Shown: one piece after another, positions 4,458 through 8,210 of the stretch
Position numbering within the stretch: the first letter of the stretch is position 1
Layout: the number at the start of each line of letters is the position of its first letter
IMG/VR virus record: IMGVR_UViG_3300026382_000017
Coordinates: 1-60,818 of that record
Length of the DNA stretch: 60,818 nucleotides
Source: a virus
Direction: 5' to 3' (one strand)
Position numbers and translations under genes: made by a program
The notes under the pieces: model-generated
What the model was told of the DNA's origin: nothing
The model's input: only the letters and a program-made list of their open reading frames with translations
The model's database searches: none

Positions 4458-5456
4458 TTAACTCCTTCTAATCTCTATATTTTGTGGTAAAATTACTAAT
4501 CTTTCATATGTATATTCGTCATATTCATCATAATATTCATCGTTATAAAGATGTTCAATTCTGAACTTTTCAAAAATTTTATGATAACCACATAAATTTT
4601 TCCATAATTCACTTGGCAGATTTCTCAATTCATCATAAAGTTTCAAATCTTCCGTATTAACTTCAACTTCAATGTTATTATATGTTACAAAAAGTAACAC
4701 TGCTAACCATTTTAGCCCATCTTTTATAAATAAATCATCATAATCAAATAAACGAAACTCAATAGTATTTCTTCCTGTGTAAATAATAGGCTGATACCTA
4801 TTTTTTTGTTTGAATTGATACTCACTTGGTCTATAATTTCCCCAAATATGATGACTTGTTATAGCTCTATATGTAGGGGAAATTTCCAATTTTTTTGCCA
4901 CAATATGTGGCTCTAAATTTTTTATTTTTTTAAATCTACTTTTATTTTTATAAGGAAAACTTATGTGTAAATGCATTCCGTTAAACACTAAACCCTCACA
5001 AACATAAATAGGTTTTGATACAAAATCAGGGTATAAATCCTCTTGCTCAAAATTTTTTTTGAATTCAAGTAGTCTTGAATGAATATCTATCTGAATTTTT
5101 TTCAATTCCTTATAAATATTTTTTACACTATCTGTTTTATTTATAACATAAAAGAAATTATTTAATTCAAACATTCCTCTATAGTATTCTCTTTCTATAT
5201 GATATTTTTCCCATAAGTCATCAGGAATATAGTTTGAGTTCAGCATAAATTCAAACTCAAATCCTATTTTAATTTTATCCGGAATTTTATCATATACTTT
5301 TTCGATAATTTCTTCTGGAATGTTGTCAGTATTCTTCACGTATAGCTCCATATCAGGAGCACATTGTTCTAATAGCTTCTGATATTTTTCTATTGTTTCG
5401 CTTGGCAATTTTATAACTTCTCCCCAATTTAAATTTTTTAATTTTATGACAGGCAT
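4458..5456 (-). CDS. Amidoligase-like enzyme (COOH-NH2 ligase family)
   Basis: This protein of about 332 aa carries the three signature blocks of phage amidoligases (Amidoligase_2 type, glutamine-synthetase-like fold): GFEFEF (residues 65-70), GMHLHIS (160-166) and TIEFRLFD (231-238). The family is predicted to use ATP to join a carboxylate to an amine, making amide or peptide-like bonds. The start chosen is M25 of the longer frame (MPVIKLKNLN), because it follows AAAAGGAGAAAA and removes a long overlap with the upstream gene. It lies directly downstream of a glutamine amidotransferase/gamma-glutamylcyclotransferase fusion, the class of partners reported for this family. The substrate is unknown. 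Confidence 0.75.
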   Translation of the reverse strand: MPVIKLKNLNWGEVIKLPSETIEKYQKLLEQCAPDMELYVKNTDNIPEEIIEKVYDKIPDKIKIGFEFEFMLNSNYIPDDLWEKYHIEREYYRGMFELNNFFYVINKTDSVKNIYKELKKIQIDIHSRLLEFKKNFEQEDLYPDFVSKPIYVCEGLVFNGMHLHISFPYKNKSRFKKIKNLEPHIVAKKLEISPTYRAITSHHIWGNYRPSEYQFKQKNRYQPIIYTGRNTIEFRLFDYDDLFIKDGLKWLAVLLFVTYNNIEVEVNTEDLKLYDELRNLPSELWKNLCGYHKIFEKFRIEHLYNDEYYDEYDEYTYERLVILPQNIEIRRS

Positions 5457-5485
5457 TTTTTCTCCTTTTAGTGTTTTAGAGACCT

Positions 5486-6838
5486 TTAAAGGTCCCCATT
5501 TATATAAAACGCATAGCAACTTGGACACAATTTGAAACCATCTATATGTTCTATTTCCTCCTCATTTACTTCTTCTCCACAAAACTCACAATGAGTTATA
5601 TCATAAATTTCATCCTTTGGTGAAATTATATCATCATAGTCATAACTTTCGCTTTTAGGAAAGCTATAACATTCCTCTTTTTTCCAATCAAGTCTTGGCT
5701 CTATTTTCCCGGTATAAATATACATCCAAGCCTCTACAATTTCTCCGTTTTCTTTGACAACCTCAATCAATTCTCTTTTATAGAGAGAAGGATGTCCTTC
5801 AAGTATATCTAATGGTTTAAAATCTTTGACTTTATAAAGTTCACCACAAATAGCACTTGAAAATTCTTTATCATCACTTTCAATAACATAAGGAATTCCA
5901 GCTCCCCCCATTATATAGAAATTATCAAGAGTCACTGCATTTCCTATAAATTTCCCTCCTGCCTCTTTCATTATTCTATAATTTCCATAACCTTTTTTTA
6001 ATGTTCCATAAACAAATACCAAATCAACTCCTTCCGTATCATCTTTCAAGTATTTATAAGTATCGTCTCTATAATAATAAGAAGTGTAATATTTTTTAGG
6101 TCTTCCGTGTGCTTTACAGACTACGCATTCATCCTCCTCTGTGTGTAGGTGTTTCACTCCACACTCATAGCAATATTCAGGAATTAAGTACTCCCCATTT
6201 TTAATTTCAACTTCATTTTTTGCAAATTTTAATTTTTTAATAAAATAACTCCAACTTTTAAATCCAAAATTATACTGACCTTGAATAAGTTGCCAGTTTC
6301 CGCTTAAAACAGGCTCACTTGAAATTAAATCGCCTGTTTCGTAAAGAAATAGACTTCTTTTATCGTCATGATGAAAAAATGCCCTCTCTTTATCAAAACC
6401 AAATACTACACCTACTCCGTCAAGCATCTCTCTAAATGCTTGATTTTTAAAAGACATAAGACTTGCTAAATGTGCGATAACTTCAGTATCGCTTTGTAAT
6501 TTGTTTTTATATAATTCGTGTAGTGCTTTTTTAGTTCCATTATGGATTATAGCTATATCTTTTTTTACAATAGGGTGTGCCAATCTTTTAGTCACTTTCC
6601 CTATTGAAGCCCATCTATGATGGACTATAACAAACTTGTAATTTGTTTTGGCAATTTTATCAAATTTTTGTAAAAATTTCTCTTTTTTCAACTCTTTAAT
6701 AGCTTTGAAAGGTTTATTACCTCCATAATAAAATACCGCACCATAAGAGTCAGTTCCTCTATGCTCTTGGATTTCGAGCATTTCTTCTAACATTACTTCA
6801 TAATTTTTGTTTTTAACAAATCCGATTATTCCACACAT
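5486..6838 (-). CDS. Class II glutamine amidotransferase / GGCT / zinc-ribbon fusion
   Basis: 450 aa in four parts. Residues 1-200 are a class II glutamine amidotransferase, with the nucleophile Cys2 (MCGIIGF), HRG 26-28, HHRWAS 73-78, HNG 99-101 and SDTEV 116-120. A zinc ribbon follows (C223, C226, C238, C241). Residues about 272-380 are a gamma-glutamylcyclotransferase/AIG2-like domain with YGTLKKG (277-283) and the LDILEG block whose Glu347 matches the catalytic acid of the family. A second zinc ribbon ends the protein (C417, C420, C438, C441). Expected chemistry is release of ammonia from glutamine and cleavage of gamma-glutamyl bonds. It is flanked by two amidoligases. The start codon is fixed by the catalytic Cys2. 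The shared leader lies at 6870-6930. Confidence 0.85.
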   Translation of the reverse strand: MCGIIGFVKNKNYEVMLEEMLEIQEHRGTDSYGAVFYYGGNKPFKAIKELKKEKFLQKFDKIAKTNYKFVIVHHRWASIGKVTKRLAHPIVKKDIAIIHNGTKKALHELYKNKLQSDTEVIAHLASLMSFKNQAFREMLDGVGVVFGFDKERAFFHHDDKRSLFLYETGDLISSEPVLSGNWQLIQGQYNFGFKSWSYFIKKLKFAKNEVEIKNGEYLIPEYCYECGVKHLHTEEDECVVCKAHGRPKKYYTSYYYRDDTYKYLKDDTEGVDLVFVYGTLKKGYGNYRIMKEAGGKFIGNAVTLDNFYIMGGAGIPYVIESDDKEFSSAICGELYKVKDFKPLDILEGHPSLYKRELIEVVKENGEIVEAWMYIYTGKIEPRLDWKKEECYSFPKSESYDYDDIISPKDEIYDITHCEFCGEEVNEEEIEHIDGFKLCPSCYAFYINGDL

Positions 6839-6869
6839 TTTTTTTCTCCTTTTTTAAAATTTTTAAAAA

Positions 6870-6930
6870 GTTACAAATTGTAACTTTTTTGAGTGTCAAG
6901 GCATACTTCACCTTCAGACACTCAAAAAAG
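6870..6930 (-). promoter_or_regulatory. Shared leader C, copy 1: operator palindrome plus hairpin
   Basis: The perfect palindrome GTTACAAATTGTAAC (6870-6884) abuts a 14-bp hairpin (6884-6897 and 6917-6930) whose loop contains CTGAAGGTG on the transcribed strand. It lies 30 bp before the start of the glutamine amidotransferase fusion. Almost identical copies precede the genes starting at 8210 and 10481, and a variant precedes 9503. The palindrome looks like a repressor site; the hairpin could act at RNA level. Confidence 0.75.
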
Positions 6931-6937
6931 ACACATA

Positions 6938-6955
6938 AGAGACTAAAAAGTCTCT
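6938..6955 (-). terminator. Hairpin at the stop codon of the zinc-ribbon amidoligase
   Basis: AGAGACT (6938-6944), AAAA, AGTCTCT (6949-6955) form a 7-bp stem that overlaps the TAG stop codon. There is no long U run, so termination may be partial. Confidence 0.4.
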
Positions 6956-8210
6956 ATTCTTGTAAAGCCTCTTGTAATGAGTTTGCTCTTTGTTTAAAAA
7001 ATTCTCTTAAATGGGGGTATTTGGTTTTGAATTCCATTACCCATTTTACAAATTTTTTAGGATTTTCTACCCCGTATCCTTTTTTTATGTATCTTATAAG
7101 AGCATCAAGAAATTCTACATTTTTGTAGTTTCTTGATGCAATAATATTTGCGTTGAATACTCGCACTTCTACCGTATGTATATTTTCCAAATTTATAGCA
7201 CAATATCTGCCTGTGCCACTATTATAGTCTTGGTCTTTATTTTCAGCTAAATTTTTCCACTTTGTTCTACAAACTTTATACTTCGCCCATCTATCGCTCT
7301 CTCTTTGAGCTATAAAGGACGTAAATTTTTTGTGTTTGTTTATAAAATAGAAAAACTTTTTGAATTCTTTATCATTTTCGAAAGCACTTCTACTTATATG
7401 AATGTGCATTCCTCCTCTATTGAAGGCACGGGCTTTTCCTCTAAAAATCTCTTCGATTTTTTCATAAAGTTTAGAGTTATAAAGGTATTCTAATGTCAAT
7501 GGATGGGTGACAATTTCAAATCCATTGTCAAGACTTCCGTCTTCTTTTAAATAAACCAAGCCTTCGAATTCTTCCATTAACTGTTCAGCAAGTTCATATT
7601 TGCTTTCATTTATTTTACCAATTTCAAGTTCAATTCCATAATACCATTTACCTTCCCCCTTAAATACAGGGGTAGGTTTGTAGTAATAGCCTTTTATTAA
7701 AGCATTACAATGCTCTTCATAACAATCAGTACAAAGCCATTCTTCTCTTTCCTCACAATATTCTCCATCATCAGAATAGTAAGTACCCTCACAGCACGCA
7801 CAATACTGAGTGTGTTCATCATAGCAATATCTACAAAGAATATAATTATCTGTTGTAATATATGTATTATTACGATGGATATATTCGTCACAATGTTCAC
7901 AACTAACATAATAATTATCCGCACAATTTTCACATACTGCTCCATCTTGAGTATCTATAGCAACATCATTGTGATAGTATTCGGCACAACCATCACAATA
8001 AAAATAATTACAATCAAGGCAATCTTCACAAACTAAATAACCATCGCCTGTTTCTATAAGGTCTTCTTGTGGAAAATATTCACCACAATTATCACATTTT
8101 GTATAGTGTTCTTCTAAACACTCTTCGCAAACTAAAGAACCTCCTCCTGTTTCTATAAGGTCTTCCTCTAAAAAAAAGTTACCACAGCATTCACATTTTC
8201 TTTTTTCCAT
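6954..8210 (-). CDS. Multi-zinc-ribbon amidoligase
   Basis: About 418 aa. Residues 6-163 contain ten C-x2-C pairs, that is five consecutive zinc ribbons (first pair C6/C9, last C160/C163). An amidoligase domain follows, with YYGIELEIG (190-198), GGMHIHIS (266-273) and TVEVRVFNA near residue 365. The ribbons probably bind nucleic acid or a protein partner and deliver the ligase to it. The enzyme family is predicted to form amide bonds with ATP. The start is placed at MEKRKCECCG, behind AAAAAGGAAAAAAG; the longer frame would run into the shared leader at 8238-8298. A paralogous amidoligase lies at 4458-5456. Confidence 0.8.
   Translation of the reverse strand: MEKRKCECCGNFFLEEDLIETGGGSLVCEECLEEHYTKCDNCGEYFPQEDLIETGDGYLVCEDCLDCNYFYCDGCAEYYHNDVAIDTQDGAVCENCADNYYVSCEHCDEYIHRNNTYITTDNYILCRYCYDEHTQYCACCEGTYYSDDGEYCEEREEWLCTDCYEEHCNALIKGYYYKPTPVFKGEGKWYYGIELEIGKINESKYELAEQLMEEFEGLVYLKEDGSLDNGFEIVTHPLTLEYLYNSKLYEKIEEIFRGKARAFNRGGMHIHISRSAFENDKEFKKFFYFINKHKKFTSFIAQRESDRWAKYKVCRTKWKNLAENKDQDYNSGTGRYCAINLENIHTVEVRVFNANIIASRNYKNVEFLDALIRYIKKGYGVENPKKFVKWVMEFKTKYPHLREFFKQRANSLQEALQE

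What the first reader, a model, noticed from the sequence alone, without database searches (positions are those of the whole stretch)
4458..8210. Phage amidoligase island: two amidoligases around a GAT-II/GGCT fusion
Two distinct amidoligase-like proteins flank a glutamine amidotransferase fused to a gamma-glutamylcyclotransferase. The motifs are seen directly (G-F-E-F-E, HxH and E-F-R blocks; Cys2/HNG/SDTE; YGTLKKG and LDxxEG). Work on amidoligases predicted that such enzymes, with GAT-II and GGCT partners, form peptide-like modifications or small peptides. Here the phage carries a ligase with five zinc ribbons that could deliver it to nucleic acid or protein, and two enzymes (ammonia release, gamma-glutamyl removal) that could supply or reverse the chemistry. 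That it tags host or phage proteins, or a nucleotide, is inference.
Basis: partly seen in the sequence, partly recalled or inferred. Interest (0 to 1): 0.85.

Follow-up and report, generated by a model that had tools for sequence, protein, structure and literature searches.

The report
Phage amidoligase–glutaminase–GGCT gene island
This phage carries two ATP-dependent bond-forming enzymes beside a fused enzyme that releases ammonia from glutamine and clips off gamma-glutamyl groups; the same gene pair recurs in many viruses and mobile elements, so phages probably use it to tag some molecule, but nobody yet knows which.

Summary
Window 4458-8210 (minus strand) holds AL2 (five tandem C-x2-C zinc modules plus a glutamine-synthetase-fold amidoligase), a GAT-II-ribbon-GGCT-ribbon fusion, and AL1, a divergent second amidoligase-like protein. 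GAT-II and GGCT pass their Pfam cut-offs. AL2 falls 1.6 bits short of Amidoligase_2's, but all 23 aligned relatives match that model, and its predicted structure hits YbdK, glutamine synthetase, Pup ligase and Dop. AL1 rests on motifs and weak profile support (E=7e-4).

The neighbourhood is conserved. GAT-II accompanies AL2-type genes in 79 of 80 IMG/VR loci (nearly always immediately downstream) and in 78 of 80 bacterial loci. The GAT-II-GGCT fusion, which looked unique, recurs in 25 of 80 GGCT-bearing viral loci, with an amidoligase in 24 of 25. No other family is shared across AL2 lineages, so the pair is a self-contained mobile module.

Best reading: a glutamine-fed amide-forming ligase, analogous to MurT-GatD, acting on a target docked by LIM-like zinc modules, with GGCT removing gamma-glutamyl groups. 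The target is unknown; protein is mildly favoured over nucleic acid. The kind is known (LUZ24/UFV-P2, Marvin, OM43 phages; function unproven); this is a new variant.

The parts
6954..8210 (-). AL2: zinc-module amidoligase (418 aa; stop included)
7722..8195 (-). five tandem LIM-like C-x2-C zinc modules of AL2 (residues 6-163)
   Evidence: 32-33-residue repeat of CxxC pairs; LIM hits by profile, best E=6e-4, and by Foldseek, E=2.7e-3 and weaker; a BFVD hit is named 'LIM domain containing protein'
6957..7694 (-). GS-fold catalytic domain of AL2 (residues 173-418): GIELE, DGSL..GFEIV, GMHIHIS, R303, RY..N, TVEVR
   Evidence: key residues invariant across 23 sequences
5486..6838 (-). GAT-II / ribbon / GGCT / ribbon fusion (450 aa)
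   Evidence: 25 similar viral GAT-GGCT fusions
6209..6838 (-). GAT-II (Ntn) domain: Cys2, R75, H99-N100-G101, D117
   Evidence: C2, H73, R75, N100, G101, D117 conserved in 98-100% of GAT relatives and in 25/25 fusions; GlmS-like
6116..6172 (-). zinc ribbon C223/C226/C238/C241 after the GAT domain
   Evidence: each Cys conserved in 88-93% of GAT relatives
5684..6019 (-). GGCT (GGACT/AIG2-like) domain, YGTL at 277, catalytic-type Glu347
   Evidence: PF06094 E=3.1e-19; PDB 1vkb, 2kl2, 3jub; Y, G, D, E 25/25 in fusions
5516..5590 (-). C-terminal zinc ribbon of the fusion (residues 417-441), resembles AL2 module 2
   Evidence: BLOSUM score 60; 7/2000 Cys-preserving shuffles reach it
4458..5456 (-). 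AL1: divergent second amidoligase-like protein (332 aa), 29 nt downstream of the fusion
   Evidence: motif order; broad amidoligase HMM E=7e-4, next window gene 0.41; no other homologue found
6828..6935 (-). repeated leader upstream of the GAT-GGCT gene, with palindrome 6868-6886
8196..8303 (-). repeated leader upstream of AL2, with palindrome 8236-8254

Best explanation
A phage-borne, glutamine-dependent amide-forming ligase system. Inferred mechanism: AL2 docks a macromolecular target, or its partner enzyme, through five LIM-like zinc modules, and its GS-fold site activates a carboxylate with ATP as an acyl phosphate. The GAT-II domain, which carries related zinc modules, hydrolyses glutamine beside it and supplies the ammonia that forms the amide, in the manner of MurT-GatD. 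The fused GGCT releases gamma-glutamyl groups as 5-oxoproline, undoing or trimming gamma-glutamyl-amine products made by AL2 or AL1. AL1 is a second ligase, for another step or target. Shown: the domains, conserved catalytic residues, near-obligatory AL2/GAT-II pairing, recurrent GAT-GGCT fusion with an amidoligase nearby, and absence of any other lineage-wide partner. Inferred: ammonia as the amine, direct contact of the two proteins, protein as target, GGCT as eraser, AL1 activity. Rough odds: GS-fold ligase coupled to a glutaminase 0.75; target protein or peptide 0.45, cell wall 0.2, small molecule 0.2, DNA/RNA 0.15.
For: 79/80 IMG/VR loci fetched on AL2 alone carry GAT-II on the same strand, nearly all immediately downstream with gaps near zero (the exception L047 ends 62 b past AL2); 78/80 bacterial loci likewise. 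Across 13 AL2 clusters (50% identity) the AL2+GAT-II family is the only near-universal one. GAT-II matches GlmS models in 21/29, PurF in 9/29 and EgtC in 1/29, i.e. the ammonia-delivering kind. Catalytic residues kept in both GAT and GGCT halves of 25/25 fusions, except His99. 24/25 fusion loci have an amidoligase upstream on the same strand, overlapping to about 2.5 kb away. AL2 fold: YbdK E=2e-5, GS 4.6e-5, PafA 1.7e-4, Dop 3.4e-4, GmaS 3.4e-4. LIM matches. Shared palindrome upstream of AL2 and GAT-GGCT. MurT-GatD precedent: PMC5871853.
Against: GGCT chemistry (gamma-glutamyl amines) is not needed by a purely ammonia-fed ligase, so part of the system must handle gamma-glutamyl groups. No substrate gene is conserved. 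Only a remote structural match (TM about 0.3-0.4). LIM similarity may be driven by Cys spacing. Zinc modules are absent or few in some AL2 and GAT relatives. Loci are not independent: 124 of the 163 AL2 proteins fall in two clusters.
Confidence: 0.45

Rival explanations
1. Gamma-glutamyl cap-and-release: AL2/AL1 ligate glutamate or another amino acid through the gamma-carboxylate onto an amine, and both GAT-II (acting as a gamma-glutamyl hydrolase, as EgtC and Dug3 do) and GGCT remove it; reversible protein or metabolite tagging.
For: GAT-II and GGCT recur fused with an amidoligase nearby in 24/25 loci; AL2's best fold hits include YbdK, a gamma-glutamylcysteine-ligase-like enzyme, with PafA, Dop and GmaS also among them. 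The BtrJ/BtrG and EgtA/EgtC precedents are from memory.
Against: GAT-II is GlmS/PurF-like, with 1 of 29 EgtC-like; most AL2-GAT pairs have no GGCT nearby; a pure eraser need not be coupled to the ligase almost every time.
Confidence: 0.25
2. Cell-envelope modification (peptidoglycan or capsule amidation or peptide addition), for example to block superinfection.
For: A paper attributes this suggestion for phiEco32 to Iyer et al. 2009 (PMC10580990); MurT-GatD amidates lipid II with a ligase plus GATase (PMC5871853).
Against: Tandem zinc modules suggest docking to a macromolecule in the cytoplasm (inference); no cell-wall gene conserved near the pair; carried by phages and elements of hosts with unlike walls (Actinomycetes, Clostridia, Methylophilales, Acinetobacter).
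Confidence: 0.15
3. DNA hypermodification: the ligase/GAT pair amidates a carboxyl handle on a base.
For: CmoY, an asparagine-synthetase-like ligase, couples glycine to carboxymethyl-C in phage DNA, and a related cluster has a glutaminase domain (PMC12783734).
Against: CmoY is a different fold; the family scans of the window list no QueD/QueE/FolE/DpdA or hydroxymethylase (the PHROGs tally showed only the first 25 of 44 families), and none is conserved near the pair.
Confidence: 0.1
4. Auxiliary nitrogen/glutathione-type metabolism without macromolecular targets.
For: Phage-ZRK32 carries GATase, amidoligase, glutathione synthase and GGCT, and its authors propose nitrogen assimilation (PMC10945688).
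Against: Tandem zinc docking modules and near-obligatory pairing are unusual for bulk metabolism; that paper shows growth effects of the phage, not activity of these enzymes.
Confidence: 0.1

Closest known systems
Phage amidoligase/GATase/ATP-grasp/GGCT operons (UFV-P2 and LUZ24-like, phiEco32, Salinivibrio CW02, Pseudomonas GP100)
   Same: GS-like ligases with GAT-II, and in most GGCT, in one region (PMC3890496)
   Different: There GGCT is a separate gene and an ATP-grasp is present in the loci read; here GAT and GGCT are fused, AL2 has five zinc modules, no ATP-grasp was listed in this record, and AL1 does not match PF14395
Two-gene amidoligase + GAT-II pair of mycobacteriophage Marvin (gp105/gp106), Methylophilales phages MEP401/402 and many IMG/VR viruses
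   Same: Same order (amidoligase then GAT-II), conserved catalytic residues; Marvin's pair has zinc-type Cys clusters in both proteins
   Different: No GGCT, no second ligase; genes usually abut or overlap, whereas here AL2 and GAT-GGCT are 115 nt apart with a repeated leader between them
MurT-GatD
   Same: ATP ligase plus separate glutaminase subunit (PMC5871853)
   Different: Mur-ligase fold and a different type of GATase; lipid II target known
Pup ligase PafA / depupylase Dop
   Same: GS-fold enzymes acting on protein amide bonds; structural hits of AL2
   Different: No Pup-like protein was looked for here; AL2 has added zinc modules and a glutaminase partner

Membership tests
GS-like amidoligases (Amidoligase_2, PF12224) - AL2 | profile similarity to the family | tested here: met
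   E=5e-4 for AL2 (20.4 bits, below the curated cut-off of 22); 23/23 aligned relatives hit the model, best 1.3e-12
GS-like amidoligases (Amidoligase_2, PF12224) - AL2 | GS/GCS2 fold | tested here: met
   AF2 pLDDT 82; all 13 PDB hits with E<=0.001 are GS/YbdK/PafA/Dop/GmaS-type
GS-like amidoligases (Amidoligase_2, PF12224) - AL2 | conserved acidic/His/Arg residues of the site | tested here: met
   E194, E196, E232, H269, H271, R303, E348, R350 invariant in 23; mapping to GS ligands is from general knowledge
GS-like amidoligases - AL1 | profile similarity and fold | tested here: inconclusive
   broad HMM E=7e-4, motif order; Pfam none, fold failed, hhalign not significant
COOH-NH2 ligase type 2 (PF14395) - AL1 | Pfam match | tested here: not met
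   no PF14395 hit at E<=1
Class II glutamine amidotransferase - fusion N-terminus | N-terminal Cys, Arg, NG, Asp | tested here: met
   C2, R75, N100-G101, D117; GATase_6 above cut-off
Gamma-glutamyl cyclotransferase (GGACT/AIG2, PF06094) | profile, YGTL and catalytic-type Glu | tested here: met
   70.1 bits against 22.8; Y277, G278, E347 25/25
phiEco32/LUZ24-type ligase operon | ATP-grasp partner | tested here: not met
   none listed in scans of the window; the PHROGs tally was cut at 25 of 44 families and the record may be incomplete
Pupylation system | small protein modifier ending in GGE/GGQ | not tested
   no search made
DNA hypermodification systems (CmoA/X/Y, 7-deazaguanine) | base-handle biosynthesis genes | tested here: not met
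   none listed in scans of the window apart from a PAPS-reductase-like protein with weak QueC similarity; none conserved near the pair
Amide-forming ligase activity | ATP- and glutamine-dependent product | not testable with these tools
   needs biochemistry

The most novel reading that the evidence does not exclude
A widespread, mobile, ubiquitin/Pup-like protein-modification system of phages: a GS-fold ligase with LIM-type adaptor repeats that amidates or aminoacylates target proteins, with a glutaminase and an eraser (GGCT) built into one partner chain.
Probability: 0.2. Interest if true: 0.9.

Novelty: new variant of a known kind. Interest (0 to 1): 0.6.

Why it matters
Amidoligase/GAT-II genes are annotated in many phages with no demonstrated function. 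Here they form a near-obligatory two-gene module shared by unrelated viruses and bacterial mobile elements, and the recurrent GAT-II-GGCT fusion ties it to gamma-glutamyl chemistry. That narrows the open question to a few substrates that can be tested with tractable phages such as Marvin in Mycobacterium smegmatis. If the target is protein, it would be a phage counterpart of pupylation.

Tried and rejected
Single-sequence AF2 of AL1 failed (pLDDT 35). AL1 homologue searches in IMG/VR, INPHARED and bacterial genomes found nothing, as did a degenerate TIEFRLFD scan (3 loci, one ordinary amidoligase). Single-protein IMG/VR searches with AL2 and with the fusion gave none and three hits; alignment queries were needed. 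A first impression that the GAT-GGCT fusion was unique (no full-length match in phage and plasmid collections) was wrong: 25 fusions appeared once GGCT itself was the query. An apparent AL2-GAT single-ORF fusion (L065) lacks the GAT N-terminal Cys and is probably a deletion or assembly artefact. Signed distances were misread at first; the amidoligase lies upstream. A first test of the C-terminal ribbon used the wrong slice and was redone. The host was not determined; a weak Epsilonproteobacteria-type dUTPase hit is not enough.
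Full report
What is there. The window is an IMG/VR virus record of 60,818 b. On the minus strand, in transcription order, lie AL2 (8210-6954), the GAT/GGCT fusion (6838-5486) and AL1 (5456-4458). ORF lists begin AL2 and AL1 at upstream GTG codons; good ribosome-binding sites favour the ATGs used here. AL2 has five tandem C-x2-C zinc modules with a 32-33-residue period, then a GS-fold amidoligase domain. 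The fusion has an N-terminal-Cys GAT-II domain, a zinc ribbon, a GGCT domain and a C-terminal ribbon. AL1 has no Cys-x2-Cys at all.

Domain evidence. GATase_6 and GGACT pass their Pfam cut-offs; solved relatives are GlmS and, for GGCT, AIG2-like domain-containing protein 1 and its kin. AL2 misses the Amidoligase_2 cut-off by 1.6 bits, but all 23 aligned relatives hit that model, and the AF2 model (pLDDT 82) hits YbdK, GS, PafA, Dop and GmaS in the PDB with E 8e-6 to 9e-4 and phage amidoligases in BFVD with E down to 5e-27. TM-scores to the PDB chains are low (0.2-0.4): same fold class, not close kin. Residues E194, E196, E232, H269, H271, R303, E348 and R350 are invariant. AL1 is orphan by sequence; the ordered motif set and E=7e-4 with a broad amidoligase HMM (197 sequences) support but do not prove the fold.

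Zinc modules. The profile of AL2 relatives hits LIM domains in the PDB (best E=6e-4); Foldseek lists LIM chains and a phage 'LIM domain containing protein'. LIM domains bind proteins (general knowledge), so protein docking is favoured over nucleic acid, weakly. The fusion's C-terminal ribbon resembles AL2's second module beyond Cys spacing (7/2000 shuffles), which suggests, without proving, a common partner or mutual docking.

Neighbourhood test. A profile of the AL2 catalytic domain found at least 585 viral relatives; the best 80 loci were kept without regard to GAT. GAT-II is present in 79 of 80 on the same strand, nearly all immediately downstream; the exception is cut off by its contig end. 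In 80 bacterial loci (mostly Oscillospiraceae/Clostridia, some Actinomycetes) it is present in 78, downstream in 77. Loci are not independent: 13 clusters at 50% identity, two of them holding 124 of 163 AL2 proteins. Across clusters the AL2+GAT family is the only near-universal one (12 of 13); other neighbours are terminase, portal, recombinase and similar lineage-bound genes, named by eye. The pair is therefore best read as a mobile two-gene module.

The fusion. A GGCT query found 80 viral loci, 25 of them GAT-II-GGCT fusions. In all 25 the GAT Cys2, His73, Arg75, Asn100, Gly101 and Asp117 and the GGCT Tyr, Gly, Asp and Glu are kept; position 99 is His in 15. An amidoligase lies on the same strand, upstream, in 24 of 25, and L251's fusion starts 890 b from its contig end. 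Both active sites are evidently under selection in one chain.

Mechanism. GAT-II subfamily calls (GlmS 21/29, PurF 9/29, EgtC 1/29) and near-obligatory pairing favour glutamine-derived ammonia fed to the ligase, as in MurT-GatD (PMC5871853). GGCT implies gamma-glutamyl amines at some step, so a gamma-glutamyl cap-and-release reading stays open. Family scans of the window listed no ATP-grasp and no genes for known base-handle DNA modifications; the PHROGs tally showed 25 of 44 families, and the record may be incomplete.

Regulation. A perfect 19-bp palindrome AAGTTACAAWTTGTAACTT occurs exactly four times in the window (0.23 expected with up to 3 mismatches): upstream of GAT-GGCT, AL2 and two small genes, three copies within a 108-nt repeated leader. 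AL2 and GAT-GGCT are thus probably co-regulated although they do not abut.

Known work. UFV-P2 carries COOH-NH2_lig, Amidoligase_2, GATase_6, ATP-grasp and GGCT as separate ORFs (PMC3890496). OM43 phages carry the amidoligase/GATase pair, and that paper reports suggestions of cell-wall modification for phiEco32 and secondary metabolism for Marvin (PMC10580990). Phage-ZRK32 carries GATase, amidoligase, glutathione synthase and GGCT (PMC10945688). No paper found demonstrates an activity for such a pair; the main source, Iyer et al. 2009, was not held, so its content is cited only through others.

Verdict. Real and conserved: a new variant of a known but functionally unproven kind.

Noticed in passing
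17815-19899 and 19924-23226 (minus): Both ribonucleotide reductase subunits (695 and 1101 aa) appear to carry inteins (Cys-start insert ending ..TGN|S and ..SGN|S with a QADG motif); read by eye, Pfam gave no intein or LAGLIDADG hit.
   Followed up: partly
6868-6886, 8236-8254, 9530-9548, 10507-10525: Perfect operator-like palindrome AAGTTACAAWTTGTAACTT, four copies, each upstream of a gene, three within a 108-nt repeated leader with a GAGTGTC/GACACTC hairpin.
   Followed up: partly
69, 896, 2940, 27401/27468, 48840/48943: Conserved AAAGTGCGGAAAACCATATCATATAGTTAGTTAG element, as inverted pairs between divergent gene blocks; promoter-like.
   Followed up: no
9644-9702: Perfect 28-bp hairpin with 3-nt loop.
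   Followed up: no
50856-51881 (plus): PAPS-reductase-like protein with weak QueC/DndC similarity.
   Followed up: no
11563-12462 (minus): Predicted lipoprotein with SPFH/Band 7 domain (family seen; gene assignment by eye).
   Followed up: no
L142, L143, L145, L122, L105, L170, L177, L094, L095: Loci with two or three AL2-type amidoligases, so twin ligases recur.
   Followed up: partly
L197, L199, L201, L227: GGCT ORFs of about 245 aa that begin with a GAT-like C-terminal part; the GAT may be split or frameshifted.
   Followed up: no
L061 and about 45-50 other viral loci: A WhiB-like gene (by eye) about 2.7 kb downstream of AL2, suggesting one large group of actinophages.
   Followed up: no
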